From Cyanobium sp. Cruz CV13-4-11 (GTDB lineage Bacteria; Cyanobacteriota; Cyanobacteriia; PCC-6307; Cyanobiaceae), in NCBI RefSeq assembly GCF_024346055.1, contig NZ_JAGQCH010000005.1:1-64000 (forward strand): 64,000 nucleotides of DNA, given 5' to 3'. The notes below the pieces were generated by a model, which ran no database searches, was not told where the DNA came from, and saw only the letters and a program-made list of their open reading frames with translations. Made by a program: the position numbers and the translations under genes. Shown one piece after another: positions 1 to 63,512 of this stretch (its first letter is position 1; each line of letters starts with the position of its first letter).

Positions 1-64
1 GGGAAACGGGCCTGCCCACCCCTTGCAACGCCAGCCGCTAAGCCGATCGGCCTGAGGTGCGCGG

Positions 65-726: not shown

Positions 727-729
727 CAC

Positions 730-1086: not shown

Positions 1087-1128
1087 GGCGATGGGATGGG
1101 TGTTTTCACTCATCTTGGGAGCATTTTA

Positions 1129-1150
1129 TTCTGATTAGGCTGAATCAGAA
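1129..1150. promoter_or_regulatory. 8-bp inverted repeat before the Nif11 gene
   Basis: TTCTGATT and AATCAGAA form a perfect 8-bp inverted repeat around the six bases AGGCTG, ending 14 bases before the ATG at 1165. The purine-rich stretch gaagggaaga that follows is the likely ribosome binding site. The AT-rich symmetry suits a dimeric repressor operator or a small leader hairpin; which of these is not decided by the sequence. Confidence 0.4.
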
Positions 1151-1164
1151 GAAGGGAAGATCCG

Positions 1165-1407: not shown

Positions 1408-1431
1408 AAACCGCCCATTCCGGTGGCCGTT

Positions 1432-1836: not shown

Positions 1837-1994
1837 GACGGTCGGCTCAGCGTTCTCTTCAGGCAGGGCCGGTGGCACGGGCTCGCGGGGCAAGGACGGG
1901 GCCCATCCTTCCTGCTTTCGTGGCGGCCAGGGATGGGCGGCTGTGGATCGTCGCGGGCCGTTGCATGGCAGCGCCGACCAACGGCCCGAACCCC

Positions 1995-3702
1995 TCAGAG
2001 CACGGGCTGCCAGGAGACGTTCCGCGCTTCGACCCCGTCGCTCTCTTCGTTAAAGGCCAGCACCCGGTTGCGCCCGGTCTGCTTGGCCCGGTACATGGCG
2101 CGATCGGCCCTGGAGATGATCGCGTCGGGGCTTTCGCCCGGTTCGACCATGGTGACGCCGATGCTCAGGGTGATCGACAGGTCGCCGGCACTGGTGGGGA
2201 TCGGTTGGGCCACGGCCCGACGCAGCTTTTCGGCGATGGTCACCGCATCACCCAGGCTCCGCACCCCCTGAAGCATCACCATCAGCTCGTCGCCTCCGAT
2301 GCGGGCGGCCATGTCGCCACTGCGCAGGCCCATGCGGATCCTGGCGGCCACGGTCCGGAGCAGTTCGTCGCCCGCCAAATGGCCGAAGGTGTCGTTGATC
2401 TCCTTGAAGTTGTCGAGGTCACAGAACAGCACGGCGGAGGCGTCGCCATGGCGCAGCACGCGGCCGGCGATGGCGGTGATCTGCTCGAGGGCCTCGTGGC
2501 GGTTCACCAGGCCGGTCAGTTCGTCGGTGCAGGCGCGGCGGGCCAGCTCCCGCTAGGCGGCCACCTCCTGATCCACGGTCCGGAACGATCCGACGATGCC
2601 ATTGAGGTGTCCATCGAGATCCCGGTGGGGGCTGGCATGCAGTTCCACCCAGCGATGGCTGCGGTCGTCGGCCAGGGCGTGGAGGTCGCGCTCCAGGGCG
2701 GGATGCTCGTCAGCGGGGATGAAGCGACTGAGGGGATGGCCGATCCAGTCCTTCGGCTGCCAACCCAGCATGCCGGTGAGCGAGGGGGAGATCCAGCTGA
2801 TCAGCCCGTCCTGGATGAGCAGCACCACATTGCTGGAGTTCTCCGCCAGGAGCCTGTAGCGCTCTTCCGAGGTGGCCAGGGCGGCTTCGGCCTGCACCAT
2901 CTCGGTGACGTCATTGAACTGGGCGATCACGAAGGCTGTGCTGCCGTCGGCATGGCGGGAGCAGGACACGCTGCCATCCACCCAGATGGAGCTGCCGGCC
3001 TTGTGGAGAATGCGCTTGCGCAACCGATAGCAAGGAAGCCGGCCGCCCAGGAGCTCCTCCATCAACGGGCTTTCGCGGGCCTGGTCCTCCGCCGGTGAGA
3101 ACGCCTGCCAGGTCAGGCCCACAAGATCAACATGATCCTGGTCGAGCAGCCCGCGGCCGGTGGGGTTGATGGAGAGGAAATGGCCCTGGGCGTCGAGCAG
3201 GGCGATGCCGGTCGAGGCGTTCTCCATCGTCAGGCGCAGCTGCTCCTCCGAGGCCGCCAGGGCCGCCTTGGTGCGCTCCTCCGCGGACCACATCCGGGGC
3301 GTTTTCGGCCAGCAACTGGTAGTGCTCCTTGAACTCCCGATTGCTGCGCTCCTTGGCTTGAAGCTCCCGGGCCAGATGCATCGACACCCAGGCCATGCCG
3401 ATCAGGCCGACCAGCCGCAGCATCAGCTCCAGCGTCGAGACCCGGGGTGCCTGAAGCGACCAGATGACGGTCAGCACGATGGCCAGACTCGTGAACCAGA
3501 CCACCTGGCGCGGCGTCGCGAACGAGGCCGCCAGAACCACAGGGATCTAGTGGTACTGGAACAGGGTGATTCCCATGGTTCTGGTTAGAACCAGATCCAC
3601 CAGAAAGAGCGCGATCAGAGCAACAGCCGAGACGACGATTCGTTGGTGATCGCGAGGTTGGGCTGGAGTCAAATGATCCGGACTGACGAAGGGGACAACC
3701 AA
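1995..3702 (-). pseudogene. Broken membrane PAS-PAS-GGDEF diguanylate cyclase
   Basis: Read on the minus strand, a membrane segment (VVSAVALIALFLVDLVL) is stopped by an in-frame TAG at about 3548. The same frame resumes with two more hydrophobic helices and the start of a PAS domain (LLAENAPDVV), then shifts frame near 3293. Two PAS domains follow (LRLTMENASTGIALLDAQG; YRLLAENSSNVVLLIQDG) until another in-frame TAG at 2553-2555. Beyond it the frame continues REL-ARRACTDELTGLVNRHEAL into a GGDEF domain with FCDLDNFKEIND and the active-site variant GGDEL. The ancestor was a membrane-bound sensor making cyclic di-GMP. A separate GGDEF fragment from about 2507 could still be made, but lacks the conserved segment before the stop. 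Confidence 0.75.
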
Positions 3703-3741
3703 TCACCAGGAGGCCCATGCCACCACCCCGGTGGTGGCGAG

Positions 3742-3885
3742 TTATCGGTTGGAGGCTTCCGCGTTGGTGTCGGAGCTGCGCTGATGGCCGTTGATGTGCT
3801 TTTCGCACGCCAGGGCTGATGTTGGGAACAGCAAAACAAAACTCAACGCCATGGCCGCTAACTGGGCCTGAAGCAGGAGATTCAT
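3742..3885 (-). CDS. Possible 47-residue secreted small protein
   Basis: An ATG at 3885 opens a 47-residue frame. Residues 1-26 look like a signal peptide: hydrophobic core ALSFVLLFP, then TSALA and a cleavage-like site before Cys27. The mature part is only about 21 hydrophilic residues (CEKHINGHQRSSDT and onward). Codon use is more AT-rich than the neighbours. No clear ribosome binding site is seen, and I do not recognise a family. It sits between the broken PAS-GGDEF gene and hoxE. It could be a chance frame. Confidence 0.3.
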   Translation of the reverse strand: MNLLLQAQLAAMALSFVLLFPTSALACEKHINGHQRSSDTNAEASNR

Positions 3886-4025
3886 GGCGTGGGCGCCCAC
3901 ATGCAGCAGATGGTAATAGGTAGCGTCCAGTTCGCTGGCTACAGAGAGTCCGGCCGCATTGCTGCTGCTCTCTGCTGACCATGGCGTGGGCTTTGGCTAG
4001 CAAGGGACGGTGGGAGAACAACGGC

Positions 4026-4529
4026 ATGACCCCTTCGGCCGCAGCCAGCACCGACCCGCGCATCGCCCAGGTGATCCGTCGACACGGAGCCCGGGCGGAT
4101 GCGCTCATCGAGGTTCTCCATCAGGTGCAGGAGCTCCACGGCTATCTGGCGCCGGAGTCGCTGCGGGATGTGGCCACCGGGATGCGGCTGCCGTTGAGCC
4201 GCGTCCATGGGGTGGCCAGCTTCTACCACCTGTTCCGGCTCGAGCCCCCCACCGCCCATCGCTGTGCCGTCTGCCTCGGCACCGCCTGCTACGTGAAGGG
4301 GGGCGCCCAGGTGGCGGCCCGCATCGAGCAGCGGCTGGGGGTGCGCCTGGACGATCCGGCGGGCGATGGCGTCTGGGCCCTGCAGCACGTCAGCTGCCTG
4401 GGGGCCTGCGGCCAGGCGCCGGTGCTGGTGGTGGATGGGGAGCTCATGACGCGGCTGCCGGTGGATCAGCCCGAGGCGCTGGACGCCCGGCTGGAGGCCG
4501 CCGGCCTGCCTCAGCGCACCACCACCTGA
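4026..4529 (+). CDS. hoxE: Bidirectional NiFe-hydrogenase diaphorase subunit HoxE
   Basis: HoxE is the small, NuoE-like [2Fe-2S] subunit of the five-subunit cyanobacterial bidirectional hydrogenase and links the diaphorase to electron carriers. The 167-residue product shows VHGVASFYHLFRL, typical of the NuoE fold. The four cluster cysteines come as C-x4-C (CLGTAC) and C-x3-C (CLGAC). I start at ATG 4026, preceded by gggag about 10 bases upstream; the ATG at 3981 adds 15 residues without a ribosome binding site or homology. hoxF follows after 135 bases. Operon position and motif spacing make this secure. Confidence 0.95.
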   Translation: MTPSAAASTDPRIAQVIRRHGARADALIEVLHQVQELHGYLAPESLRDVATGMRLPLSRVHGVASFYHLFRLEPPTAHRCAVCLGTACYVKGGAQVAARIEQRLGVRLDDPAGDGVWALQHVSCLGACGQAPVLVVDGELMTRLPVDQPEALDARLEAAGLPQRTTT

Positions 4530-4664
4530 TCGGCGCCCAGCTCGCGGGATTGGTTCAGGGCCAGCTCCATCCTGGACAGCATTGCCAAAGCCCTGGCCAC
4601 GCCGACATGAACGGCGCCCCGGCCATTTCCTGGCTAGCAAAAGGAGAGGCGCTCCCGGTTCACC

Positions 4665-6275
4665 ATGCCCTCCCCTGTGCAGGTGCGCTGCTGTGATGCC
4701 AGTGGCTGCCGTTCCGCCGGCAGCCAGGCCCTGCGCAACGCCCTGGAGGGTGCCCGTGACGCCGCCGGCCTCGATCCCTCCCAGCTGACGATCAAGCCGG
4801 TGGGTTGCCTGCGCCTGTGCGGCAGCGGCCCCCTGGTGGCCTGCGACGGGCCCGGCCCCACCCAGCTCTTCGGCGGCATGGCACCGGAGCAGGCCGGGGC
4901 CCTGATCGCCGCCGCCCTCCCCAGCAGCCCTGCCCCCGGCAGCGGCGACCCCCTGGCGGCCCATCGGCTCGATCTGGAGGCCCCCTTCTTCGCCCTGCAG
5001 CGGCCCGTGGTGCTCGAGGGCTGCGGTCAGGTGGATCCCGAATCCATCGACGACGCGATCGCCTTCGGCACCTACGCCCAGCTGCAGCGTGTTCTGCAGG
5101 AGCTCAGCCCCGAGCAGGTGCGCGACGAAGTACGCCGCAGCGGCCTGCGCGGCCGTGGTGGCGCCGGTTATCCGACGGGCCTGAAGTGGGACACGGTGGC
5201 CCTCCAGCCCCCCGGCCCCCGCTACGTGGTCTGCAACGCCGACGAGGGGGACCCGGGCGCCTTCATGGACCGCAGCGTGCTGGAGAGCGATCCGCACCGG
5301 CTGATCGAGGGGATGGCGATCGCCGCCTACGCCGTCGGCGCCGAGCGGGGCTTTGTTTATGTGCGGGCGGAGTACCCCCTGGCGATCGAACGGCTGCGGC
5401 TGGCCCTGCAGCAGGCCCGCAGCCGGCACCTGCTGGGCAACCACATCCACGGCACCAGCTTCAACCTGCGCCTGGAGGTGCGGGTGGGGGCCGGCGCCTA
5501 CGTCTGCGGCGAGGAGACGGCCCTGCTGCTCTCGATCCAGGGTCAGCGGGGCATGCCCCAGCCCCGCCCGCCCTTTCCGGCCCAGTCGGGCCTCTGGGGG
5601 GCGCCCACCCTGATCAACAACGTCGAGACCTTCACCGCCGTGCCGGCGATCCTGCGCCAGGGCGGCGACTGGTACGCCGCCATGGGCACCGCCCACAGCA
5701 AGGGCACCAAGGTGTTCGCCCTCTCCGGGGCGGTGGTCAACACCGGCCTGGTGGAGGTGCCGATGGGCACCTCCCTGCGCACCGTGGTGGAGCTGATCGG
5801 GGGCGGGGTGCCCGATGGCTCCCCGATCAAGGCGGTGCAGACCGGGGGGCCCTCGGGGGGCTGCATCCCGGCGGAACGGCTCGACACCCCCGTCGACTAC
5901 GAAAGCCTGGTGGAGCTCGGTTCGATGATGGGCTCCGGCGGCATGGTGGTGATGGGGCAGAGCACCTCCATGCCGGAGGTGGCGCGCCACTTCATGGGTT
6001 TCAGCGTCAACGAGAGCTGCGGCAAGTGCGTGCCCTGCCGCGCCGGCACCGTGCAGCTGGCCCAGCTGCTCGATCGCTTCGTGGAGCGCCGCGCCACCTC
6101 CGCCGACATGGAACGCCTCGATGCCCTCTGCCAGATGGTCAAGGTCACCAGCCTCTGCGGCCTGGGCCAGTCGGCCCCCAATCCGGTCCTCAGCACCCTG
6201 CGCTGGTTCCGCCATGAATACGAGGCCGCCTGCCGGGAACCTTCGGGCTGCGTCGCCACCGGGAGGGTCCGCTGA
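4665..6275 (+). CDS. hoxF: Bidirectional NiFe-hydrogenase diaphorase subunit HoxF
   Basis: HoxF (536 residues, NuoF-like) carries FMN, binds NAD(P)H and holds iron-sulfur clusters. The N-terminal thioredoxin-like part has cysteines near residues 10, 15, 48 and 52. Residues 163-175 (GRGGAGYPTGLKW) are the glycine-rich FMN/NADH site, and GAGAYVCGEE lies near 276-284. Cys452, Cys455, Cys458 and Cys498 bind the [4Fe-4S] cluster. The gene begins 135 bases after hoxE, with aaaaggaga as the nearest purine-rich site about 17 bases upstream. It overlaps hoxU by one base. Length and motifs are normal for the family. Confidence 0.96.
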   Translation: MPSPVQVRCCDASGCRSAGSQALRNALEGARDAAGLDPSQLTIKPVGCLRLCGSGPLVACDGPGPTQLFGGMAPEQAGALIAAALPSSPAPGSGDPLAAHRLDLEAPFFALQRPVVLEGCGQVDPESIDDAIAFGTYAQLQRVLQELSPEQVRDEVRRSGLRGRGGAGYPTGLKWDTVALQPPGPRYVVCNADEGDPGAFMDRSVLESDPHRLIEGMAIAAYAVGAERGFVYVRAEYPLAIERLRLALQQARSRHLLGNHIHGTSFNLRLEVRVGAGAYVCGEETALLLSIQGQRGMPQPRPPFPAQSGLWGAPTLINNVETFTAVPAILRQGGDWYAAMGTAHSKGTKVFALSGAVVNTGLVEVPMGTSLRTVVELIGGGVPDGSPIKAVQTGGPSGGCIPAERLDTPVDYESLVELGSMMGSGGMVVMGQSTSMPEVARHFMGFSVNESCGKCVPCRAGTVQLAQLLDRFVERRATSADMERLDALCQMVKVTSLCGLGQSAPNPVLSTLRWFRHEYEAACREPSGCVATGRVR

Positions 6276-6994
6276 TGGCCGTCGTCACCCTCAACGTCAA
6301 CGGCCAGGACGTGGCGGTGCCGGCGGGCGCCAGCCTGCTGGAGGCCACCCGGGCCGCCGCGGCCGATGTCCCCACCCTGTGCCACCTCGATGGCCTCAAC
6401 CCCGTGTCCTCCTGCCGGCTGTGCCTGGTGGAGGTGGAGGGGTCGACCAAGCTGCTGCCCGCCTGCAGCACCGCCGCCGCCGAGGGGATGGTGGTGCACA
6501 CCCACACGCCCCGGCTGAAGGAGTACCGGCGCATGACGGTGGAGCTGTTCTTCGCCGAGGGCAACCACGTCTGCGCCGTCTGCGTCGCCAACACCCACTG
6601 CGAGCTGCAGGACATGGCCGTGACCGTGGGCATGGACCACTCCCGCTTCCCCTACCAGTACCCCCAGCGGCCGGTGGATGCCTCCCACCCCCAGTTCACC
6701 CTCGACCACAACCGCTGCATTCTCTGCACCCGCTGCGTGCGGGTGTGCGATGAGATCGAGGGGGCCCACGTGTGGGACATCGGCAGCCGCGGCGGCCAGT
6801 GCCACATCGTTGCCGGGCTCGATGAACCCTGGGGCCAGGTGCAGGCCTGCACCTCCTGCGGCAAGTGCGTCGAGGTGTGCCCCACCGGCGCCCTGTTCCG
6901 CAACACCGACACCACCGCCGAGAAGCAGCCTGACGCCAGCCTGCCCGCCCTGCTGCGCAGCGCCCGCGACCAGCACCGCTGGCACAACCAGTGA
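6275..6994 (+). CDS. hoxU: Bidirectional NiFe-hydrogenase diaphorase subunit HoxU
   Basis: HoxU (239 residues) resembles the N-terminal part of NuoG and relays electrons between HoxF and the hydrogenase module. Seen in order: a plant-ferredoxin-like [2Fe-2S] site (C36, then CRLC at 47-50, then C64), a His/Cys-rich segment ([13 protein letters not shown]) typical of the second cluster, and two four-cysteine [4Fe-4S] motifs ([11 protein letters not shown] and [12 protein letters not shown]). Start and stop overlap the neighbours by a few bases (TGATG at the hoxF end), indicating translational coupling. All cluster residues are intact. Confidence 0.96.
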
Positions 6995-7005
6995 CCCCCC
7001 ACCCC

Positions 7006-7584
7006 ATGACCCCCTCCCCCGCCGCCGCCAAGCTCCGCCTCGCCACCGTCTGGCTGGCGGGCTGCTCCGGCTGCCACATGTCGTTCCTGGATCTCGATGA
7101 GTTCCTCTTCGACCTGGCCGAGAAGGTGGATGTGGTGTTCTCGCCGGTCGGCAGCGACGTCAAGATCTACCCCGAGAACGTCGACATCGCCCTGGTGGAG
7201 GGGGCGGTGGCCAATGTCGACAACCTGGAGCTGGCCCTGCAACTGCGCCAGCGCACCGCCCTGGTGATCTCCTTCGGCGACTGCGCCGTGACCGCCAACG
7301 TCCCCGGCCTGCGCAACCTGCTCGATGGCGGCCACGACGGCGCCAAAGCGGTGCTGGAGCGCGGCTACCTGGAGCTGGCCGATGCCACGGGCCAGCTGCC
7401 CTTCGCCCCCGGCATCGTGCCCGAACTGCTGCCCAGGGTGCTGCCCCTGCATGAGGTGATTCCGGTGGATCTTTTCCTCCCGGGCTGCCCCCCCTCCGCC
7501 GAGCGCATCCGCGAGGCGATCACCCCGTTGCTGGCCGGCGATCGGCCGGCGATGGAAGGGGCCGCCATGCTGCGCTTCGGATGA
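7006..7584 (+). CDS. hoxY: Bidirectional NiFe-hydrogenase small subunit HoxY
   Basis: HoxY carries the proximal [4Fe-4S] cluster next to the NiFe site. The product (192 residues from ATG 7006) has C20-x2-C23 ([11 protein letters not shown]), FGDCAVTAN and the late PGCPPSAE motif, giving the cysteines of the proximal cluster. Only this cluster is present, as usual for short HoxY proteins. A GTG at 6991 overlapping the hoxU stop would add five residues; either start keeps the whole domain. hoxH begins 10 bases downstream, so both catalytic subunits are made together. Confidence 0.95.
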
Positions 7585-7594
7585 GGACAACGCC

Positions 7595-9037
7595 ATGACC
7601 CGCACCGTCATCATCGATCCGGTCACCCGCATCGAGGGCCACGCCAAGATCACCCTCCACCTCGACGACGCCGGCCACCTCACCGACACCCGCTTCCACG
7701 TGGTGGAGTACCGGGGCTTCGAAAAATTCTGCGAGGGCCGGCCCTTCACCGAGATGGCCGGCATCACGGCCCGCATCTGCGGCATCTGCCCGGTGAGCCA
7801 CCTGCTGGCGGCCGCCAAGACCGGCGACAAGCTGCTGGCCCTTTCGATCCCCCCGGCGGCCGACAAGCTGCGGCGCCTGCTCAACCTGGCCCAGCTCACC
7901 CAGTCGCATGCCCTTTCCTTCTTTCATCTCAGCAGCCCCGATTTCCTGCTGGGCTGGGAGAGCGATCCGGCCAAGCGCAACGTCTTCGGCCTGATGGCCG
8001 CCGACCCCGACCTGGCCCGGGCCGGCATCCGCCTGCGCCAGTTCGGCCAGCAGATCCTGGAGCTCCTGGGCGGCCGCAAGATCCACTCCGCCTGGGCGGT
8101 GCCCGGGGGCGTGCGCTCCCCCCTGAGCCAGGAGGCCAGGGACTGGATCCTGGATCGCCTGCCCGAGGCCCGCGCCACCGTCACCCTGGCGCTGGAGCTC
8201 TACAAGAAGCTCCTCGATGGCCCCCTGCAGAAGGAGCAGCGGGTCTTCGGCGATTTCCCCAGCCTGTTCATGGGTCTGGTGACCCCCAACGGGCTCTGGG
8301 AGCACATCGAGGGGCGCATCCGTTTCCGGGATGCCACCGGGGCGATCGTGGCCGACCAGCTCAGCGAGGACGACTACGCCGATTTCCTCGGTGAGGCGGT
8401 GGAACCCTGGAGCTACCTCAAGTTCCCCTACTACAAACCCCTGGGCTACCCGGACGGCATCTACCGGGTGGGCCCCCTGGCGCGGCTCAACGTCTGCGAC
8501 AGCATCGGCACCCCCTGGGCCGACCGGGAGCTGGCGGAGCTGCGCCAGCGCAGCGGCCAGCCCGTCACCTCGAGCTTCGCCTACCACCACGCGCGGCTGG
8601 TGGAGATCGTGGCCTGCCTGGAGGCGATCGAGATCCTGGTGGCCGACCCCGACCTGATGCACGGCCGCATCCGGCTGCGGGCCTCCCTCAACCGCAACGA
8701 GGCGGTGGGGGTGAGCGAGGCGCCCCGGGGCACCCTCTTCCACCACTACAAGGTGGATGACGACGGGCTGCTCACCAGCGTCAACCTGATCATCGCCACC
8801 GGCCAGAACAACCTGGCGATGAACCGCACCGTGCACCAGATCGCCCGGGAGTACATCCCCGATCCGGTGCCCGCCGGCGCCGAGATCCCCGAGGCGATGC
8901 TCAACCGGGTGGAGGCGGGCATCCGCTGCTTCGACCCCTGCCTCTCCTGCTCCACCCATGCCGCCGGCCAGATGCCCCTGCGCCTGCAGCTGCTGGCCGC
9001 CGATGGCACGGTGCTGGCCGAGCGCCTGCGGGGATGA
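7595..9037 (+). CDS. hoxH: Bidirectional NiFe-hydrogenase large (catalytic) subunit HoxH
   Basis: HoxH (480 residues) holds the NiFe(CN)2CO active site that interconverts protons and H2. The N-terminal nickel motif is RICGIC (Cys62, Cys65) and the C-terminal one is DPCLSC (Cys449, Cys452) followed by STH. After His455 there is a 25-residue tail starting AAGQMPL, the peptide that a HoxW-type protease removes after nickel insertion. The family signature RIEGHAKI is at residues 12-19. Ribosome-binding-like gaggacaacgcc precedes the ATG. The stop overlaps hoxW by four bases. All four Ni/Fe cysteines are present, so an active enzyme is expected. Confidence 0.97.
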
Positions 9038-9483
9038 GCGGCGCCGGCGTCGGCACCGGAGGCGCGCTGCTGATCGGCATCGGCAACCCCCTGCGGGGCG
9101 ATGACGGGGTGGGCTGGCACCTGGTGGAGGGCCTGGGGCTGCAGCGCCACCAGCTCACCCCCGAGCTGGCCGAGGCGGTGGCCGCCGCCGATCGCCTGCT
9201 GATCGTCGATGCCTGGCTGGCGCCGCCCCGGAGCCCCTGCCTGCTGCGGCCCCTGGTGGCCTCAGGCGGCTGGGAGCGGGACACGCACCGGGTGGCGCCC
9301 GCTCGGTTACTGGCCCTGGCCGAACAGCTGTTCGGCCGCTGCGTGCCGGCCCACGAGCTGCTGGTGCCGGCCTTCGACTTCTCCTGGGGCGATCGCTTCT
9401 CGCCGCAGCTGCGGCGCCAGCTGCCCGAGGCGCGGAGGCTGCTGCGGGGTTGGTTGGGGGAGGGGGCGGCGCCCTATGCATGA
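9034..9483 (+). CDS. hoxW: HoxH C-terminal maturation protease HoxW
   Basis: The 149-residue product belongs to the hydrogenase maturation protease (HyaD/HybD/HoxW) family, which clips the C-terminal tail of the large subunit once nickel is in place. Seen: [15 protein letters not shown] at residues 14-28, with the conserved Asp pair used to sense nickel, LIVDAW near the middle, and HELL/FDFSW segments later. It overlaps hoxH by four bases (ATGA) and hypA by eight, so it is translationally coupled to its only likely substrate. Length is normal. Confidence 0.93.
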
Positions 9484-9817
9484 GTTGAGCCTGATGGATG
9501 CCGTGCGGGAGCAGGTTCTGGAGCAGGCCGCCCTGCACGGCGCCCGCCGCATCGCGGCGATCACCCTGCGGGTGGGCAGCCTGGCGGGGGTGGAGATCGA
9601 AGCCCTGCGCCTGGCCCACACGGTGGTGATGGCGGGCACGATCGCCGCCGGCTCCCGGCTGGAGATCGAGGCGGTTCCTGCCGAGTGTTTCTGTGCCGCC
9701 TGCGAGCAGCCGTTCCTGGCGCGCGATGGCTGCTGCGATTGCCCGCGTTGCGGCCGCATCAGCCGGGAGTTGCTGCGGGGCCGGGAACTGCAGCTGGCCT
9801 CCCTGGAGCTCGACTGA
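9476..9817 (+). CDS. hypA: Hydrogenase nickel-insertion protein HypA
   Basis: HypA delivers nickel with HypB. The 113-residue product starts [10 protein letters not shown]; His2 is the conserved N-terminal nickel ligand. The C-terminal half has two CxxC zinc pairs (CAAC and CPRC), the second preceded by CCDC. The start at 9476 lies inside the hoxW reading frame and gives an eight-base overlap; this start is required because His2 must be N-terminal. It closes the hox gene run: a GC-rich hairpin and an AT-rich gap follow. Confidence 0.94.
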   Translation: MHELSLMDAVREQVLEQAALHGARRIAAITLRVGSLAGVEIEALRLAHTVVMAGTIAAGSRLEIEAVPAECFCAACEQPFLARDGCCDCPRCGRISRELLRGRELQLASLELD

Positions 9818-10079
9818 GCCGGCCACTGGGGGCCTGGCAGGCCTGGCGGGCGCTGGGGAGGTAGCGCCCCTGGTTGGCGGATATCCCGACCAGGACCGGA
9901 AAAAGTTCTTTTTATTATATGTCTAAGGTCCAATTAGCGAAGGATTCAGGGGTGAAACGTAATCTTGTGCAAGTTTTCTTTTTTCCCCCACTCTGTGCCA
10001 GGCCTGATGCTGTCCATGGCCTGTCAATTCCTCCATGGCGTGGGTTTATTCATGAATGAGTGAGAGGAACGCAACCCCC
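9818..10079 (+). promoter_or_regulatory. Intergenic region: hairpin, then AT-rich promoter-like stretch
   Basis: No gene was seen in these 262 bases. GGGCGCT (9848-9854) and AGCGCCC (9863-9869) form a 7-bp hairpin after hypA, with no T run directly after it. From about 9900 the composition drops sharply in GC: gaaaaagttctttttattatat contains a possible -10 element, and another pyrimidine-rich stretch lies at 9968-9990. I read it as the end of the hox transcript followed by a promoter for the beta-barrel gene. Exact promoter elements are not certain. Confidence 0.4.
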
Positions 10080-55707: not shown

Positions 55708-57243
55708 TCAGTGCCCTCCTGCGGTGGTGAGGCTGATGGTGGAACCTACCGCCTCGGCGGGCGTGTGCCGTTCCTGGTCGCGCACGGTGAGCAGGGCATG
55801 CAGCAGGCCCTGGGCAAAAAGATCCGGGTAACGGTTCTCGATCGCTTCCTGCACCCGCTGGGCATGGCGCACCGCCCGCTCCCGGGCACCGGGCACCTTG
55901 CCGTTGTAATCGAAGCGCACCACCACCGGCACCGGCAGGCCGCGGGAGACGTTGAGGCCCTTGAAGATCTTCACTCCCACGTCCATGTCGGGGGCCCCCT
56001 CCTCAACGGTGTCCATGTAGGCGAAGTAGGTGAGGTTGCGCAGGTGGATCTCCTTGAAGCCGATCCCCACGCCGATGAAGCGCTCGGCATGGCCGGCATC
56101 GGCGTAGTGGCCGTGGTGGTACTGGCGCACGTAGTCGATCTGGGAGATGTTGTGCTCCAGGAGCCGGGCAATCAGCCGCACCATGCCGGGATCAGGGGTG
56201 CTCGCTGCCGCCGCCGTGGCCAGCTCGGCGATCCGGCGCCTGGCCTCCTCGGGGTGCAGGTGGCGCGTCGCCTCATACACCGTGGTGGCATCCAGCCAGT
56301 GATCCAGGCGGGTGCTGCCATCCATGCCCGGCACGTGAACCCGGATGGCGTCGGTGTCGGTGTCGATCCCCAGCAGCAGCAGGTCGACGGAGGCGCCGCA
56401 GCAGAAGCTGTTCTCCACGGCCTGCTGGAACTCCATCAGCCGCGCTCGGCCGCAGCTGGCGGCCAGGGCGTCATCACTGCCGTGGGCGGCGCAGCCCTCG
56501 TGGGACGGGTCACGGGAACTGAAGTGGTACAGCACCACCTTCAGGTAACGGGTGTCGTCATGGGCGGGGTTGGGAACGCCCTCCCGGTAGCGGCGATGTT
56601 CGGTCTTGACCCAGCGGTTGACCGTGTTCTCCACATCAAACAGGGCACCGGCATGGGGGCGGCGGCGCACCGAGCTGAACGGCAGCCTCAGGGCAAAGGC
56701 GATGGCATGGGCCAGGCGTCCATCGGCGCAGGGGGTGGCATCCAGCAGGTGGAAGCCACAGGAGAGCAGGAAGGCGTTGAATTCCGCCGCCGCCGGGCTG
56801 CCGGGTTGGCCCTGCAGGGGATCGTTGCGGAAAAACCCGTCGCTGGTCTGTTCGTAGGTTTCGAAGACGCACCAGGCGAACAGGCTGCGCATGTCGAGCT
56901 GGCTGACCCAGGCCTTCTCCAGGATCGGCAGGGGCAGGCTGAACCCCAGTTCGGCCTGGGCCAGGGCCTGGGCGCGCGCGACGAAGTCATCCTCGTGCTG
57001 CAGGGCCGACAGGCGCTTGAGCACGGGCACGATCCGATCGAAGGCGTCCTTGACGCCGCGGTCGTAGCCCTCGAGGGCCGCGTTGGCGGCGCTGTCCGTC
57101 AGCGGATGGAGGCCCGACGCCCCCTGACCGAGCCGGACAGCCGCCAGGCGCCGGGAGAGATCGGCGCCACCGGAAGCGTCGGTCCGGCGCCGGGGGGCGC
57201 TGGGGGCAAGGGGACGGATCGTTGGAGCCGGGCGGCGGGGCAT
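55708..57243 (-). CDS. csoS3: Carboxysomal carbonic anhydrase CsoSCA (CsoS3)
   Basis: CsoSCA (511 residues) turns bicarbonate into CO2 inside the carboxysome. Residues 1-35 are Pro/Arg-rich (likely RuBisCO- or shell-binding tail). The catalytic beta-type domain includes FCCGASVDLLLLGIDTDTDAIRVHVPG, CGRARLMEFQQAVENS, and HEGCAAHGSDDAL, where Cys and His of the zinc site lie. The C-terminal domain (HLRNLTYFAYMDTVEEGAPDMDVGVKIFKG) is the inactive duplicate typical of CsoS3. It is 6 bases after csoS2 and 2 bases before csoS4A. Length is normal. Confidence 0.94.
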   Translation of the reverse strand: MPRRPAPTIRPLAPSAPRRRTDASGGADLSRRLAAVRLGQGASGLHPLTDSAANAALEGYDRGVKDAFDRIVPVLKRLSALQHEDDFVARAQALAQAELGFSLPLPILEKAWVSQLDMRSLFAWCVFETYEQTSDGFFRNDPLQGQPGSPAAAEFNAFLLSCGFHLLDATPCADGRLAHAIAFALRLPFSSVRRRPHAGALFDVENTVNRWVKTEHRRYREGVPNPAHDDTRYLKVVLYHFSSRDPSHEGCAAHGSDDALAASCGRARLMEFQQAVENSFCCGASVDLLLLGIDTDTDAIRVHVPGMDGSTRLDHWLDATTVYEATRHLHPEEARRRIAELATAAAASTPDPGMVRLIARLLEHNISQIDYVRQYHHGHYADAGHAERFIGVGIGFKEIHLRNLTYFAYMDTVEEGAPDMDVGVKIFKGLNVSRGLPVPVVVRFDYNGKVPGARERAVRHAQRVQEAIENRYPDLFAQGLLHALLTVRDQERHTPAEAVGSTISLTTAGGH

Positions 57244-57249
57244 CAGGGA

Positions 57250-59661
57250 TCAGCCCCGGGCTCCGCCGGAGACCGTGATCAGGGAACCGGAGTTGGTGCT
57301 GCCGCTGGATCCGGTGATCTTGTTGGTGGGCTCGGGCAGGGCCTCGTTGCGCTTGTTCTGGAAGCCGGGCATGGCCGACATCGGGCCAACCCTGCTGGGG
57401 TTGCGGCGACGGGCCGAGGCCCCTTCGGTGCCGGTGACGTGCTTGCCCCGATCCCAGTCGTCACCGGTGATGTTCAGGCCGGCGGAGATGCCTTCGCCGG
57501 TGACTCGGGAGGTGGGACGGGCATCCTCATCGACAGTCACCGGAGCTGCCGCCGCCGGCGGGCGGAGGCGCACCCGATCCTGGGCGGGACGGTCGAAGCG
57601 GAACTGTTCGGTGCCGGTCACCTTGTCGGCGGCCATGTCGAACGGTCCGGTGATGCGGTTGCCCTGCTCGTAGCTGTTGCCGGTAACGCCACCGGGCCGC
57701 TGGCGGGAGCTCTGGGCCGTCTGGGCGGCGCGGGCCGGGGACTGGACACTGAACTGCTGCCAGGGCTGACCAGTGAGGGGCTGGGGGAAGTCGGCGTCCT
57801 GGCTAACGGCGGCGCCGCAGGCTTCTGCCAGCTGGTCGCCGCCGATGTAGGGGGTGCCGGTGATGTCCTCGCAGGCGCCGCGCTCGGCACCGGTCATGAC
57901 GCCGCCGACGCCAGGCTGAAGACCGGTCATCACGGTGCCCATGCGCACCGGGGTGCGCTGGCGGATCTCGGTCAGCCGGTCGGAGGAGCACCAGGTACCC
58001 GCCTGCTCCATGCCGGCGTAGGGGGTGCCGGTGACCGCCTTGCAGGTGCCGGGTTCATCGCCGGTGACCTTCTCGGAACGGCCGGTGCGGGTGCCGCTCA
58101 CCACCATCGCCTTGTTGGTGACGCTGAAGCCCACCTTGGCCGCTTCCGGTGCCGGCTTGGTGCCGCAGAACTGTTCGAACTGCTGGGTGCCGATGTATTC
58201 GTCGCCGGTGACCAGGCGGCAGGAGCCCGGCTCGTCGCCGGTGACGTGCTCACTGCGGCCCACGTGGGTGCCGGTGATGCCGGTGCCCCGCAGGGTGTGC
58301 AGGCTGCTGACCTTGGCGGGGGCACGGCCAGGCACCTGGGCCTGGTCGTCCATGTACTGGGTGCCGGTGAGCTGGCGATTGGCACCCGGCTCGTTGCCGG
58401 TGACTTTTTCGGAGCGCTCCACGCTCACCCCGGAGACCGGCCGGCCCTCGGTGGTGCGGGTGAAGGCCACCTTGCGGGGGGAGGGAGCGGGGGCGGAGGT
58501 GCCGCACCAGGCGGCGCTCTGGTTGGCGGAGATGTACTCGGTGCCAGTGACGTTTTTGCAGGTGCCGGGCTCGTCGCCGGTGACCTTCTCGGAACGACCG
58601 ACCTCGTTGCCCGTGACCCGGTTGCCGTGGCTGGTGGCGCTCACCCGCACCTTGGCGGGCTGCAGGGGGGTGGGATCGCTCTGGCAGAAGGTGCGGAAGA
58701 TCTCGGCGCCCATGTACTCAGTGCCGGTGACCGGCCGGCAGGTGCTGGCCTCGTTGCCGGTGGTCTTGAGGGAACGGTTGGCCTGGGTGCCGGTGACCAC
58801 CTGGCCCCGGGCCGTCTCGCTCACACCCACCTTCCAATGGGCATCGGCGGCGGCATCGATCTTGGCCTGGCCGCGTCGGGGCCCGGTGGGACGGGAGCCA
58901 CCGCTGCGGGAGCTGCCGGCGGAGCCCACCTTGCACTTCAGTTCGCGCACCTTCTGGGCCAGCTCGCGGCTGCTCATGTCGGGGTTCGCCTGGCGAGCCA
59001 CCGAGGCGGCGACGGCGCTGGTGGGGGCGCTGGCGGATTTGCCCCGCTTGGAGAGGGCCTCGCGCCGGGCCATGACGATGGCCCGGCTGGGGTTGTGCTG
59101 GGCGGTGCGCTTGGCGGTGCCGCGGCGCTCGCCGTTCCGCGAATTTCGGTTGGCCAGGGAGGCCCCGAGGCCGGCGGAAGAGCTGGTGCTCACGGCGGCG
59201 GCGGCCGCCGCCTTGGCGTCCTTGCAACCGCAGGGGCGGTCGCTGGCGGTGGCCGCGACGGGGGTGGCGGCGCTGGCCTTGCTGGCGCGCATCGCCTCCT
59301 GGCGGGTGCGGTCGCTGGAGGTGTCGGCGCGCTTGCCGCGGCGGGAGAGGGCTTCCCTGCGCTCCAGCACCAGGTTCCGGCTGGGGTTCGCCAACGGCTT
59401 GGCGTTGCTGCGATGGCCGGAGCCGGAGGAGGCGCTCAGGGAGGAAGCACCCCCACGACGCGCGGTGGGGGTGGGGCGCTGGGGCGCCGGGGCAGCGGCG
59501 ACAGGTGCGGCACTCACCGTTTCGGGGCGGCTGCGCTGGGCGTCAGCGGCCGTGCGCACCCTGCCCGGGGAGGACATGAACTGGGCGGAGGCTTTCTTGC
59601 CGCCGTTGGTGAGGGCCTTGCGGCGCTCCAGAGCTGCTTCCCGACTGGTGGTCCTGGCCAT
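57250..59661 (-). CDS. csoS2: Carboxysome assembly scaffold CsoS2
   Basis: CsoS2 (803 residues) is the disordered protein that joins RuBisCO to the shell. N-terminal region: three basic repeats of the S-R-x3-x-x-R-R-x-A-L-S type near residues 6, 94 and 192 (ERRKALTNGGKKA; ERREALSRRGKRA; ARREALSKRGKSA). Middle region: six repeats with V-T-G motifs (as in VTGDEPGTCKNVTGTEY) between about 277 and 640; the third (GANRQLTGTQY) lacks the usual Cys pair. The C-terminal region ends ITVSGGARG, the conserved shell anchor. No programmed frameshift signal was identified. Second largest carboxysome component here. Confidence 0.94.
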   Translation of the reverse strand: MARTTSREAALERRKALTNGGKKASAQFMSSPGRVRTAADAQRSRPETVSAAPVAAAPAPQRPTPTARRGGASSLSASSGSGHRSNAKPLANPSRNLVLERREALSRRGKRADTSSDRTRQEAMRASKASAATPVAATASDRPCGCKDAKAAAAAAVSTSSSAGLGASLANRNSRNGERRGTAKRTAQHNPSRAIVMARREALSKRGKSASAPTSAVAASVARQANPDMSSRELAQKVRELKCKVGSAGSSRSGGSRPTGPRRGQAKIDAAADAHWKVGVSETARGQVVTGTQANRSLKTTGNEASTCRPVTGTEYMGAEIFRTFCQSDPTPLQPAKVRVSATSHGNRVTGNEVGRSEKVTGDEPGTCKNVTGTEYISANQSAAWCGTSAPAPSPRKVAFTRTTEGRPVSGVSVERSEKVTGNEPGANRQLTGTQYMDDQAQVPGRAPAKVSSLHTLRGTGITGTHVGRSEHVTGDEPGSCRLVTGDEYIGTQQFEQFCGTKPAPEAAKVGFSVTNKAMVVSGTRTGRSEKVTGDEPGTCKAVTGTPYAGMEQAGTWCSSDRLTEIRQRTPVRMGTVMTGLQPGVGGVMTGAERGACEDITGTPYIGGDQLAEACGAAVSQDADFPQPLTGQPWQQFSVQSPARAAQTAQSSRQRPGGVTGNSYEQGNRITGPFDMAADKVTGTEQFRFDRPAQDRVRLRPPAAAAPVTVDEDARPTSRVTGEGISAGLNITGDDWDRGKHVTGTEGASARRRNPSRVGPMSAMPGFQNKRNEALPEPTNKITGSSGSTNSGSLITVSGGARG

Positions 59662-59733: not shown

Positions 59734-60075
59734 TCAGCGGCCTTCGAACACAACGAAGCAGGCACCCTGACTCTGGGTGTAGGCGTCGTAGCCGACGAGG
59801 CGCACGTGATGGTCCGGATAGGCCCGGTGGCAGGACTCCAGTTCGTTCACGATCACACCCAGATCCTTCTCACCGAAGAAGGGCAGCTTCCAGAACGACC
59901 AGTAGGTGGCCATGGAGCGGCTGGGGTGGACGTGCTCGACCAGGGGGCTCCAGCCCTGGGCAATGATGTAGGCGATCTGGTCGTAGATCTCGTCCTGGGT
60001 CATCGGCGGGAGGAAGCCGAAGGTCTCCAGGGTGGCGACTGTTTGATAGTCACCCACGGTGCTCTTGAAGGGCAT
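59734..60075 (-). CDS. rbcS: RuBisCO small subunit
   Basis: From ATG 60075 the product is 113 residues: MPFKSTVGDYQTVATLETFG, then LPPMTQDEIYDQIAYIIAQGWSPLVEH, ATYWSFWKLPFFGE, and HVRLVGYDAYTQSQGACFVVFEG. These match the short form I small subunit of alpha-carboxysome RuBisCO. The longer frame from 60135 adds residues of the intergenic hairpin region and is not needed. It follows rbcL by 100 bases, with a stem-loop in the gap. Length and motifs are standard. Confidence 0.96.
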   Translation of the reverse strand: MPFKSTVGDYQTVATLETFGFLPPMTQDEIYDQIAYIIAQGWSPLVEHVHPSRSMATYWSFWKLPFFGEKDLGVIVNELESCHRAYPDHHVRLVGYDAYTQSQGACFVVFEGR

Positions 60076-60110
60076 GGGGATCCTTGTGGGGAATGGGATG
60101 GGAAGCCCAG

Positions 60111-60150
60111 CTCCGCTGACCTCCGGTGGGTACACCTTCGGTCAGCGGAG
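60111..60150 (-). promoter_or_regulatory. 11-bp stem-loop in the rbcL-rbcS gap
   Basis: CTCCGCTGACC (60111-60121) pairs perfectly with GGTCAGCGGAG (60140-60150). The 18-base loop contains a second small stem, GGTG with CACC. It lies 35 bases before the rbcS start on the minus strand. It could protect the rbcL 3' end or set the L:S ratio; no T run is present, so it is not a standard terminator. Confidence 0.55.
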
Positions 60151-61639: not shown

Positions 61640-61951
61640 TCAGTCCTTCGATCCCAGGCCGAAGCTGCTGTTCAGCGCCGGCTCCACTTCACGGTGGGGA
61701 CGGGCGATGATGTGGGCGGCCACCAGGCCGTCGCCCACCCGCTCGCAGGCGTCGGCGCCGGCGCGGACGGCGGCGTTGACGGCACCGGTTTCACCCCGCA
61801 CCAGGACGGTCACGTAGCCGCCTCCGACGAATTCGCGACCAATGAGGCGCACTTCGGCGGCTTTGGTCATGGCGTCAGCCGCTTCGATGGCGGGGACCAG
61901 ACCGCGTGTCTCGATCATGCCGAGGGCGATGCCCATGGTTTCGTTTGCCAT
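61640..61951 (-). CDS. csoS1A: Carboxysome shell hexamer protein CsoS1A
   Basis: The 103-residue protein is a single BMC-H domain: GIALGMIETRGLVPAIEAADAMTKAAEV, FVGGGYVTVLVRGETGAV, and GDGLVAAHIIARPHREVEP at the end. It is the main hexagonal shell tile. A strong ribosome binding site, CAGGAGCAGGTA, precedes the ATG. It heads the rbcL-rbcS-cso operon. The domain DNA is nearly the same as in csoS1E, 7.2 kb downstream in operon order. Confidence 0.96.
   Translation of the reverse strand: MANETMGIALGMIETRGLVPAIEAADAMTKAAEVRLIGREFVGGGYVTVLVRGETGAVNAAVRAGADACERVGDGLVAAHIIARPHREVEPALNSSFGLGSKD
61682..61933. repeat. BMC domain repeat, copy 2 (csoS1A), pairs with 54440-54691
   Basis: Same-orientation partner of the csoS1E stretch, 252 bases without gaps. 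The near identity at the protein level (a handful of changes over about 84 residues) with mainly silent DNA differences points to strong selection and probably occasional conversion. Confidence 0.85.
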
Positions 61952-62152
61952 TACCTGCTCCTGGAGGAGGGGGGTGGAATGTTCGTGTGCAACCTTGCTC
62001 CTCCGTCAAACCCTCCGTCAAGCGATTGGCAGCCCTGCGGCCATCATGGTTTCGCGATTGGCTGATAAGGGCAGCTGATCAGTGCGACACAAAAAGCAAA
62101 CTTTGCTTGATCGCTGCTGCCGCCTCGGCCGCTGCGGCGCCGCCTGCCGCGT
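61952..62152 (-). promoter_or_regulatory. csoS1A-rbc promoter region with paired direct repeats
   Basis: These 201 bases lie between the PII-like gene stop and csoS1A. CCTCCGTCAA occurs twice, at 62000-62009 and 62012-62021, start to start 12 bases; on the minus strand each reads TTGACGGAGG, and TTGACG resembles a -35 element. The repeats suit a tandem operator or overlapping promoters. The csoS1A ribosome binding site lies at the left end. No other gene is seen here. Confidence 0.5.
62094..62108 (-). terminator. Likely intrinsic terminator of the sbtA/PII-like unit
   Basis: On the minus strand AAGCAAA and TTTGCTT form a 7-bp inverted repeat around one base and are followed by TTTGTG, giving a run of five T. 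The stem is AT-rich with almost no loop, so it is weak, but it lies 45 bases past the PII-like stop and ahead of the csoS1A promoter. Confidence 0.45.
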
Positions 62153-62434
62153 TCAGAGGGGCTCGGCGCTCGAGACGAAGCCCACGCCGCCGTAGCGCTT
62201 CAGCAGGGGGCGCAGGGCCTTGCCCACGGCGTCCAGCACGGCGTCCTCCACGAACACGATCACGTGGGCATTGGCCCCCAGCCCGCTGAAATCCATCCCC
62301 TCCGAGATCTCCCCGGACGGCCCCATGCCCGTGACGTGCCGCATCACTGAATAGCCCTTGGCCCCGGCCGCGGTGATGGCCTTGCAGACGCGGTTCAACT
62401 CCCGTTCGCTGAGAAACAGATCGATTCGCTTCAT
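62153..62434 (-). CDS. PII-like protein of the SbtB/CPII type
   Basis: The 93-residue protein has the PII ferredoxin-like fold: KRIDLFLSERELNRVCKAITAAGAKGYSVMRHVTGMG at the N terminus (GAKGYSV resembles the conserved G-A-x-G-Y-T segment), a T-loop rich in Gly and Ser (PSGEISEGMDFSGLGANAH), and DAVGKALRPLLKRYGGVGFVSSAEPL at the end. SbtB regulates SbtA in response to adenine nucleotides including cAMP; CPII binds adenine nucleotides and bicarbonate. It lacks the C-terminal Cys pair of classic SbtB. It follows sbtA by 46 bases on the same strand, which supports a role in bicarbonate uptake control. Confidence 0.85.
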   Translation of the reverse strand: MKRIDLFLSERELNRVCKAITAAGAKGYSVMRHVTGMGPSGEISEGMDFSGLGANAHVIVFVEDAVLDAVGKALRPLLKRYGGVGFVSSAEPL

Positions 62435-62480
62435 GGTGTCGGGGCGAAGGTTCGGCGACGGGATGGCAGACGGCCTGCGT

Positions 62481-63512
62481 TCAGCCGACGGGGATGAAGT
62501 GTCGGGTCAGCGCCATGTACAGGGGAATCCCGACAACCACATTGAAGGGGAAGGTGAGGCCCAGGGCCGTGGAGATGTAGAGGCTCGGGTTGGCCTGGGG
62601 AACGGTCATACGCATCGCCGCCGGCACGGCGATGTAGGAGGCGCTGGCGCAGAGCACCATGAACAGCAGGGTGTTCCCCTGGCTCAGGCCCAGCAGGGCA
62701 CTCACCAGCAGCCCCAACAGGGCATGCACGGGGGGGGCCAGCAGGGAGAAGCCGATCAGGAAGGCCCCTGTCTGGCGCAGGTCCCGCAGCCTCTGCGCCG
62801 CCACGATGCCCATGTCGAGCAGGAAGAAGCAGAGGGCGCCGTAGAACAGTTTTTCGGTGAAGGGATCCATCTTTTCCAGCCCCGCCGGGCTGAAGGCGGC
62901 CACCACATAGCCAATCACCAGGCTGCCGATCAACAGGTACACGGAACCGTTGAGAAAGGCCTCCTGGAGAACTTCCCGCCAGCGCAGACTGCCACTGCCC
63001 TCCTGATCCCCGCCGTTCTCTTGATCCCTGACGGACTCCGCATCTTCGGCAGGGGCCGAGAGCTTGGCCAGGATCACCCCCACCACGATCGCCGGCGATT
63101 CCATCAGGGCCAGGGCCGCCACCATGAAGCCGTCGAAGTTCACCTCGAGAACATTGAGGAAGCTCTCGGCGGTGATGAAGGTGACGGCACTGATGGAGCC
63201 GTAGGAGGCGGCGATGGCGGCGGCGTTGTAGCCATCCAGCCGCAGCCGCAGCAGCAGGAAGCTCGTGAGGGGCACCAGCAACGACATCACCACCGCCGCC
63301 CCGATCGTCAGCAACACCTGCGGGCCGAGGCCGCTGTGGGCCAGTTCCATGCCCCCTTTGAAGCCGATCGCCAGCAGGAGGTAAAGGGAGAAGAGCTTTG
63401 GCAGCGGTGAGGGGATCTCCAGGTCGGAGCCGACCAGAACACCGAGGATGCCCAGGAAGAAGAACAGCACCGGCGCTGAGAGCAGGTTCTGTAGGACCAG
63501 GCTCGACTGCAT
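62481..63512 (-). CDS. sbtA: Sodium-dependent bicarbonate transporter SbtA
   Basis: SbtA imports HCO3- with Na+ across the cytoplasmic membrane. From ATG 63512 the product is 343 residues with about ten membrane helices in two halves. Seen: LSAPVLFFFLGILGVLVGSDLEIPSPLPKLFSLYLLLAIGFKGG at the start, AASYGSISAVTFITAESFLNV (core substrate-site region), and CASASYIAVPAAMRMTVPQANPS in the second half. A hydrophilic loop of about 25 residues (APAEDAESVRDQENGG) separates the halves; in homologues this loop contacts SbtB. The longer frame from 63542 adds a leader without homology. The PII-like partner lies downstream. Confidence 0.92.
   Translation of the reverse strand: MQSSLVLQNLLSAPVLFFFLGILGVLVGSDLEIPSPLPKLFSLYLLLAIGFKGGMELAHSGLGPQVLLTIGAAVVMSLLVPLTSFLLLRLRLDGYNAAAIAASYGSISAVTFITAESFLNVLEVNFDGFMVAALALMESPAIVVGVILAKLSAPAEDAESVRDQENGGDQEGSGSLRWREVLQEAFLNGSVYLLIGSLVIGYVVAAFSPAGLEKMDPFTEKLFYGALCFFLLDMGIVAAQRLRDLRQTGAFLIGFSLLAPPVHALLGLLVSALLGLSQGNTLLFMVLCASASYIAVPAAMRMTVPQANPSLYISTALGLTFPFNVVVGIPLYMALTRHFIPVG

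What the first reader, a model, noticed from the sequence alone, without database searches (positions are those of the whole stretch)
62153..63512. SbtA with a divergent PII-like partner directly ahead of the shell operon
The PII-like protein has a different T-loop and lacks the classic SbtB C-terminal Cys pair, closer to CPII of chemoautotroph carboxysome loci. It may sense adenylates plus bicarbonate and act on SbtA, the shell, or both.
Basis: partly seen in the sequence, partly recalled or inferred. Interest (0 to 1): 0.55.

Follow-up and report, generated by a model that had tools for sequence, protein, structure and literature searches.

The report
SbtA2 bicarbonate pump with SbtB2 partner
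This is the second type of cyanobacterial bicarbonate transporter with its own small PII-type regulator, sitting next to the carboxysome genes in this genome; the pair is already described in print, and what remains open is which signal the regulator senses.

Summary
The two genes are real and exactly placed: an SbtA-family transporter (62481-63512, minus) and a 93-residue PII-like protein (62153-62434, minus), 46 bp apart and 201 bp before csoS1-cbbL. They are not the ordinary SbtA-SbtB pair, which the same genome carries elsewhere. They are SbtA2 with, by inference, the PII-like protein that a 2026 review calls SbtB2. The carboxysome neighbourhood (2015), the SbtA2 subfamily (2022) and SbtA2-SbtB2 coupling (2026) are in print, so the pair itself is not new. 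The PII-like gene was never found without SbtA2 (0 of 94 genomes in a phylum draw, 0 of 115 in a family draw) and lies beside it in 93 of 94. Only 40 of the 115 have Rubisco within 10 kb. The likely target is therefore the transporter, not the shell. The missing Cys pair proves little, since 14 of 32 ordinary SbtB rows lack it too. More telling, the ATP-clamping R43xxR46 of SbtB is absent in all 65 alpha sequences. Bicarbonate sensing is possible but untested.

The parts
62481..63512 (-). sbtA2: Sbt_1-family transporter, 343 aa, ATG at 63512
   Evidence: Pfam PF05982 400.7 bits; about 25% identical to the genome's own SbtA1, 38-45% to non-cyanobacterial Sbt_1 permeases on plasmids; SbtA2/SbtA1 split SH-aLRT 100* in a quick tree
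62153..62434 (-). sbtB2: PII-like protein, 93 aa
   Evidence: Pfam P-II 41.9 bits; AF2 model pLDDT 87.6 with a PII fold; relatives in 115 of 151 genomes of the family
62264..62350 (-). T-loop region of SbtB2 (residues 29-57)
   Evidence: residues 27-57 hold 16 of the 28 invariant columns in 27 alpha sequences; no R43xxR46
62435..62480 (-). 46-bp gap between sbtA2 and sbtB2
   Evidence: sequence; median gap of 37 bp in 93 genomes
61952..62152 (-). 201-bp gap between sbtB2 and csoS1; no promoter-like, terminator-like or Rfam hit in it
61640..61951 (-). csoS1 (BMC shell protein), first gene of the neighbouring carboxysome operon
   Evidence: Pfam BMC 92.6 bits
60176..61588 (-). cbbL, Rubisco large subunit
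59734..60135 (-). cbbS, Rubisco small subunit (true start probably further in)
57250..59661 (-). csoS2
55708..57243 (-). csoSCA, carboxysomal carbonic anhydrase

Best explanation
The two genes are a cyanobacterial SbtA2-SbtB2 pair. SbtA2 takes up bicarbonate, and SbtB2 is its dedicated PII-like valve plug. By analogy with SbtA-SbtB and AmtB-GlnK, an SbtB2 trimer docks on the cytoplasmic face of the SbtA2 trimer, pushes its conserved T-loops into the cleft between gate and core domains, and holds the transporter shut. Release or docking would be set by a small ligand in the inter-subunit cleft, probably an adenylate and possibly with bicarbonate as in CPII. The position ahead of csoS1 is read as operon economy, not as a sign that the shell is the target. 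Shown here: gene identity, linkage to SbtA2, T-loop conservation, loss of the SbtB ATP clamp. Inferred: docking, inhibition, ligand.
For: SbtB2 was found only with SbtA2: 94 of 94 in a phylum draw of 386 genomes, 115 of 115 in a family draw of 151; adjacent in 93 of 94. The pair is also in cyanobacteria outside the family, taken to be beta types, whose carboxysomes lack cso genes by established knowledge (no CsoS1 or CbbL match in the 20 loci of about 8 kb examined). SbtA1 and SbtB1 form a separate pair in the same genome. The T-loop region is the most conserved part: 16 of 31 columns invariant against 12 of 62 elsewhere, in 27 sequences that are mostly close relatives. Liu et al. 2021 (PMC8352866, whole text) show SbtB's T-loop inserted in the SbtA cleft. 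A 2026 review (PMC13249358, passages) says SbtA2 interacts with SbtB2, mechanism unknown.
Against: SbtA2 also occurs without a detected SbtB2: 9 of 124 in the family draw (one of them, G138, is only a partial match) and 4 of 98 in the phylum draw, so it may work unregulated or with another partner; two of the nine keep a short decayed remnant. G241 has the two genes 2.3 Mb apart. No binding data for this protein. The R43xxR46 motif by which SbtB holds ATP phosphates is missing, so an adenylate response like SbtB's cannot be assumed. That the SbtB2 of the review is this gene is inferred from linkage; Rourke et al. 2026a was not held and Selim and Alva 2024 was seen only as a citation.
Confidence: 0.75

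Rival explanations
1. SbtB2 is a CPII-type sensor: it descends from a common ancestor with CPII, binds ADP or AMP together with bicarbonate, and gates SbtA2 by the product it imports.
For: hhalign: SbtB2-alpha to CPII 81, SbtB2-beta to CPII 97, against 56 and 58 to SbtB1, while CPII to SbtB1 is 37. Seven residues between GY and GxG in 63 of 65 SbtB2-alpha, 16 of 22 SbtB2-beta and 4 of 4 CPII, against six in 32 of 32 SbtB1, 3 of 3 Arthrobacter and 13 of 13 GlnB. CPII bound to ADP, AMP and bicarbonate (5d4o) is the top Foldseek hit; CPII entries fill the top six VIA ranks, Z 12.6-11.7. CPII is also the best sequence hit in the PDB, though weak (E 0.008 against 0.022 for SbtB).
Against: Unstarred support for SbtB2 plus CPII (64/81); a clade of all SbtB2 with SbtB1 that leaves CPII out is not rejected (p 0.469). 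By VIA the best SbtB (3dfe, Z 11.7), PII (11.5) and GlnK (11.4) are tied or nearly tied with CPII. Foldseek E-values of SbtB (8.4e-7) and CPII (2.3e-7) are close. The 'CPII' group has only four rows: Thiomonas (partial), Nitrobacter and two actinobacterial DAB-linked proteins. CPII's neighbour is DAB (DUF2309) in the three records opened, not SbtA2. The residues that bind bicarbonate were not known to me, so not checked.
Confidence: 0.3
2. It is an ordinary SbtB with the usual AMP/ADP/ATP/cAMP responses, only diverged in sequence.
For: Same superfamily, same kind of partner, T-loop of the same aligned length (26 residues in 62 of 65 SbtB2-alpha and 31 of 32 SbtB1); AU tests do not reject SbtB2-alpha plus SbtB1 (p 0.156) or the window row alone with SbtB1 (p 0.132).
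Against: SbtB1 is its own clade (96/87*) and SbtB2-alpha another (98/94*). R46 is I or V in 65 of 65 SbtB2-alpha and R in 32 of 32 SbtB1. The genome keeps both pairs. Held with SbtB1, log-likelihood falls by 20.6.
Confidence: 0.1
3. It regulates the carboxysome shell or the cso operon because it lies directly ahead of it.
For: In 40 of 115 SbtB2 genomes of the family cbbL lies within 10 kb. Among 33 genome-contig loci, mostly near relatives, csoS1 follows within 4 kb in 32; the contig of the other (L062) ends too soon to tell.
Against: 18 of 115 have cbbL on the same contig more than 10 kb away (up to 966 kb), 46 on other contigs, 11 have no cbbL match. 32 of 136 cbbL genomes have no SbtB2 match. 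The pair occurs outside the family. SbtB2 was not found without SbtA2.
Confidence: 0.05

Closest known systems
SbtA2-SbtB2 (SbtB-like) pair of cyanobacteria (Cabello-Yeves 2022, PMC9477826; Rourke 2026a and Selim and Alva 2024 as cited in PMC13249358)
   Same: Second SbtA subfamily coupled to a second PII-like protein. [quoted passage not shown]
   Different: Nothing decisive found; identity with the published SbtB2 is inferred because the primary paper was not held
SbtA-SbtB (SbtA1-SbtB1), Synechocystis slr1512-slr1513
   Same: Sbt_1 transporter followed by a PII-like gene; PII fold
   Different: 25% identity in the transporter; docked HCO3 sites Y140 and S327 are L and A, D325 is Y in all 92 cyanobacterial SbtA2 rows; no R43xxR46; one-residue T-loop insertion
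CPII of Thiomonas and Nitrobacter
   Same: Nearest by profile score; shared T-loop insertion; no R43xxR46; no R-loop
   Different: Mean 26%, at most 31% identity; neighbour is DAB (DUF2309) in the records opened, and the window's genome has no DabA match
GlnB/GlnK
   Same: PII fold
   Different: Profile score only 22-27; different T-loop; the genome has two separate GlnB-like genes

Membership tests
SbtA2-SbtB2 | Transporter in the SbtA2 subfamily, apart from SbtA1 | tested here: met
   SbtA2/SbtA1 split 100* (quick tree, 24 rows, SH-aLRT only); about 25% identity
SbtA2-SbtB2 | PII-like gene beside sbtA2 | tested here: met
   46 bp apart here; adjacent in 93 of 94 genomes
SbtA2-SbtB2 | Physical interaction of the two proteins | not testable with these tools
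   stated for SbtA2/SbtB2 in PMC13249358, not for this strain
SbtB (SbtB1) | R43xxR46 ATP-phosphate clamp | tested here: not met
   0 of 65 SbtB2-alpha; R43 in 31 of 32 and R46 in 32 of 32 SbtB1 rows; motif from PMC10117731
SbtB (SbtB1) | C-terminal R-loop CGPxGC | tested here: not met
   absent, but also absent in 14 of 32 SbtB1 rows, so not a required feature
SbtB (SbtB1) | Linked to SbtA1 | tested here: not met
   linked to SbtA2; SbtA1-SbtB1 is on C4
SbtB (SbtB1) | Inside the SbtB1 clade | tested here: inconclusive
   separate starred clades, but AU does not reject joining (p 0.156, 0.132)
CPII | Inside or sister to the CPII clade | tested here: inconclusive
   profile score favours it; tree support 64/81 unstarred; AU p 0.51
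CPII | Carboxysome neighbourhood | tested here: met
   met in the window, but in only 40 of 115 family genomes
CPII | Linked to DAB (DUF2309/DabA) | tested here: not met
   no DabA (PF10070) match in the window's genome, while the control rang in 2 of 14 genomes; the linked gene is SbtA2
CPII | Adenylate binding enhanced by bicarbonate | not testable with these tools
   CPII structures with ADP, AMP and bicarbonate are in the PDB; the enhancement is recalled from Wheatley 2016, not held
PII superfamily | P-II fold and Pfam model | tested here: met
   41.9 bits against 25; VIA Z up to 12.6

The most novel reading that the evidence does not exclude
SbtB2 and CPII form one bicarbonate-sensing PII branch that plugs two unrelated carbon-uptake machines, SbtA2 in cyanobacteria and DAB in chemoautotrophs and actinobacteria. 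SbtB2 would then gate SbtA2 by the internal bicarbonate pool together with AMP/ADP, without the ATP clamp and redox loop of SbtB, so one cell would run two bicarbonate pumps under two different rules.
Probability: 0.25. Interest if true: 0.6.

Novelty: new member of a known kind. Interest (0 to 1): 0.32.

Why it matters
The 2026 review (PMC13249358) says that how SbtB2 regulates SbtA2 remains to be elucidated. The comparison here narrows that question: the partner is most likely the transporter, the SbtB ATP clamp is gone, and the nearest relatives by profile are CPII proteins, solved with bicarbonate bound. SbtA2 has been expressed in tobacco according to the title of Rourke 2026a, so knowing whether its plug answers to bicarbonate, energy or both has practical weight.

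Tried and rejected
Ordinary SbtB: rejected as the label for linkage and motif reasons, though trees do not exclude it. Shell target: rejected on distribution. Absent Cys pair as evidence for CPII: rejected, since 14 of 32 SbtB1 rows lack it and PMC10991534 (passages) says Cyanobium sp. PCC 7001 SbtB naturally lacks the R-loop. An earlier count of 16 of 32 was wrong, because it looked for the motif only at the very end; one search corrects it. Trees for the SbtB2/CPII/SbtB1 order: five AU tests, none rejected its constraint; treekit warned of long branches meeting. Viral contigs for CPII relatives: none. Promoter, terminator and RNA-family scans: no promoter-like site, one terminator-like site inside sbtA2 (1.5 expected), no Rfam hit. 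NCBIfam gave no match over its cut-off for either protein; the PG0541 hit (18.7 bits against 45) was dropped. Non-cyanobacterial SbtA2-like genes on plasmids: the six records opened outside Arthrobacter showed no PII neighbour in their tables and no PII-profile hit under E 0.01; the other records were not opened, except three Arthrobacter ones and two cyanobacterial SbtA1 ones.

Papers: PMC8352866 whole text; PMC4499774 a passage and the introduction (28, 35; figure itself not seen); passages only of PMC13249358, PMC9477826, PMC4275256, PMC10991534, PMC10117731, PMC4633670, PMC13144422, PMC12313861 (its 'SbtB2' appears to be SbtB with a reference number); only reference entries of PMC12918739, PMC13370225, PMC6458275; PMC10880623 held none of the PII terms (97). 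Not held, so nothing seen: Rourke 2026a (38, 39), Roberts 2012 (98), Wheatley 2016 (112), Forster 2023 (113). Wheatley's bicarbonate result is recalled. No held paper contains both SbtB and CPII, and 'carboxysome-associated PII' is in none; that says nothing about papers not held.

Full report
What is there. The window lies on contig C45 of a 3.41-Mb genome. On the minus strand it holds a Sbt_1 transporter of 343 aa (62481-63512), a PII-like protein of 93 aa (62153-62434), and then csoS1, cbbL, cbbS, csoS2, csoSCA and a vertex gene; a Ham1 gene diverges upstream. The gaps are 46 bp and 201 bp.

Not the ordinary pair. The same genome has a second Sbt_1 gene on C4, followed by a 104-aa SbtB. That one is the canonical type: 47-63% identical to SbtB of cyanobacteria outside the family and paired with SbtA1. 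The window transporter is only about 25% identical to the genome's SbtA1, but 38-45% identical to Sbt_1 permeases on non-cyanobacterial plasmids. In a 24-row quick tree the SbtA2 and SbtA1 sides split with SH-aLRT 100. Of the four residues docked to bicarbonate in SbtA (S114, Y140, S324, S327; Liu et al. 2021, PMC8352866), S114 and S324 are kept, while Y140 is L and S327 is A in all 92 cyanobacterial SbtA2 rows (73 from the family, 19 from outside). D325 is Y in all 101 SbtA2-type rows, against D in 27 of 27 SbtA1. This agrees with the different kinetics that a 2026 review reports for SbtA2 (Km about 150 uM, chloride dependence; PMC13249358), but it does not prove the cause.

Already in print. 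[quoted passage not shown] the figure was not seen). The SbtA1/SbtA2 split is in PMC9477826 (2022). SbtA2 coupled to a PII-like protein 'SbtB2 or SbtB-like', mechanism unknown, is in PMC13249358. I equate the window gene with SbtB2 by linkage; the primary paper was not held.

Distribution. In a draw of 151 genomes of the family, 115 have the PII-like gene and 124 have SbtA2; all 115 have SbtA2 and none has the PII-like gene alone. In a draw of 386 genomes of the phylum, 94 have the PII-like gene, 98 SbtA2, 94 both. The two are within 1 kb in 93 of 94 (median gap 37 bp); the exception is G241. These include cyanobacteria outside the family, which I take to be beta types, where the PII-like protein is only 22-38% identical but, G241 apart, still beside SbtA2. 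The counts are of related genomes, so the Fisher values are not independent trials, and a single-sequence query can miss very divergent copies. Among the 115 family genomes, cbbL lies within 10 kb in 40, on the same contig but farther in 18, on other contigs in 46, and was not found in 11. The tie is to SbtA2, not to the shell.

What kind of PII. A careful tree of 94 rows and 108 columns gives starred clades for SbtB2-alpha (98/94), SbtB1 (96/87) and CPII (99/91), and joins SbtB2-alpha with SbtB2-beta (66/93) and these with CPII (64/81), both unstarred, with long-branch warnings. AU tests do not reject SbtB2-alpha with CPII (p 0.51), with SbtB1 and Arthrobacter (p 0.466), with SbtB1 alone (p 0.156), the window row with SbtB1 (p 0.132), or CPII left outside a clade of the other non-GlnB rows (p 0.469). 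So the tree is silent on the deep order. Profile comparison is not: SbtB2-alpha scores 152 to SbtB2-beta, 81 to CPII, 56 to SbtB1 and 22 to GlnB; SbtB2-beta scores 97 to CPII and 58 to SbtB1; CPII scores 37 to SbtB1. The CPII profile rests on four rows: Nitrobacter, a piece of Thiomonas, and two actinobacterial DAB-linked proteins. A one-residue insertion at the T-loop base (seven residues between GY and GxG) is in 63 of 65 SbtB2-alpha, 16 of 22 SbtB2-beta and 4 of 4 CPII, while SbtB1 (32 of 32), the Arthrobacter rows (3 of 3) and GlnB (13 of 13) have six; 2 alpha and 6 beta rows had no exact GxG. The AF2 model (pLDDT 87.6) has CPII with ADP, AMP and bicarbonate as top Foldseek hit (E 2.3e-7, SbtB at 8.4e-7) and CPII at VIA ranks 1-6 (Z 12.6-11.7), with the best SbtB at 11.7, PII at 11.5 and GlnK at 11.4, a near tie.

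Sensor residues. SbtB holds ATP phosphates with R43xxR46 (PMC10117731). R46 is I or V in 65 of 65 SbtB2-alpha, and R43 is R in only 2 of 65; in 32 SbtB1 rows R43 is R in 31 and R46 in 32. In SbtB2-beta R43 is R in 16 of 22 but R46 in none. The R-loop CGPxGC is absent in all 87 SbtB2 rows, but also in 14 of 32 SbtB1 rows, including all 5 of the window's family, as known for Cyanobium (PMC10991534).

How it most likely works. In Synechocystis the SbtB trimer sits on the SbtA trimer and inserts its T-loops in the gate-core cleft (PMC8352866). In 27 alpha SbtB2 sequences, mostly near relatives, 16 of the 31 columns from G27 to H57 are invariant, against 12 of the other 62, as expected if the T-loop is the part in contact. 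I infer the same docking on SbtA2. The ligand is inferred to be an adenylate in the inter-subunit cleft, possibly with bicarbonate; nothing here tests that. SbtA2 without a detected SbtB2 exists (9 of 124 and 4 of 98 genomes), and in two genomes a short decayed remnant follows SbtA2, so the plug can be lost.

CPII's own partner. In Nitrobacter hamburgensis, CPII (86% identical to the Thiomonas protein over 85 residues) follows DUF2309 (DAB) twice, and relatives in Mycolicibacterium and Nocardia also follow DUF2309. Thiomonas itself was not examined. The window's genome has no DabA match. If SbtB2 and CPII are sisters, one PII branch serves two unrelated uptake machines. Conversely, three Arthrobacter plasmids pair an SbtA2-like permease with an SbtB1-like PII, so partners seem to have been exchanged.

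Verdict. The CPII resemblance is the part worth testing.

Noticed in passing
L049 (CALPNT020000185.1), 1121-4518: A contig titled 'MAG: Bifidobacterium breve' carries a cyanobacterial sbtA2-sbtB2-csoS1-cbbL locus; the bin looks mislabelled or contaminated.
   Followed up: no
L075 from 3094, L076 from 4124: Short decayed SbtB2-like remnants directly after an intact SbtA2 in G083 and G128.
   Followed up: partly
L079, 2700-4297: SbtA2 followed directly by csoS1-cbbL with no SbtB2 detected between.
   Followed up: partly
L099 (G497), 3996-6629: SbtA2 broken into pieces with a stop codon and about 1.3 kb between the parts, while the SbtB2 frame stays open.
   Followed up: no
L110 3641-4246 and L111 3971-4693: Two tandem SbtB2 copies beside SbtA2 in two cyanobacteria outside the family.
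   Followed up: no
L175, L176, L177, about 2387-3639: Arthrobacter plasmids pair an SbtA2-like permease with an SbtB1-like PII protein that keeps R43xxR46, next to a divergent DUF6671 gene.
   Followed up: partly
L072 (Nitrobacter hamburgensis plasmid), 1-9972: Two copies of a DUF2309 (DAB) gene, each followed by an identical CPII gene, shortly before the cso operon.
   Followed up: partly
L077 and L078 (G075, G101): Two genomes of one genus have a divergent SbtA2 (53-54% identical) with no PII-like gene within about 3 kb.
   Followed up: partly
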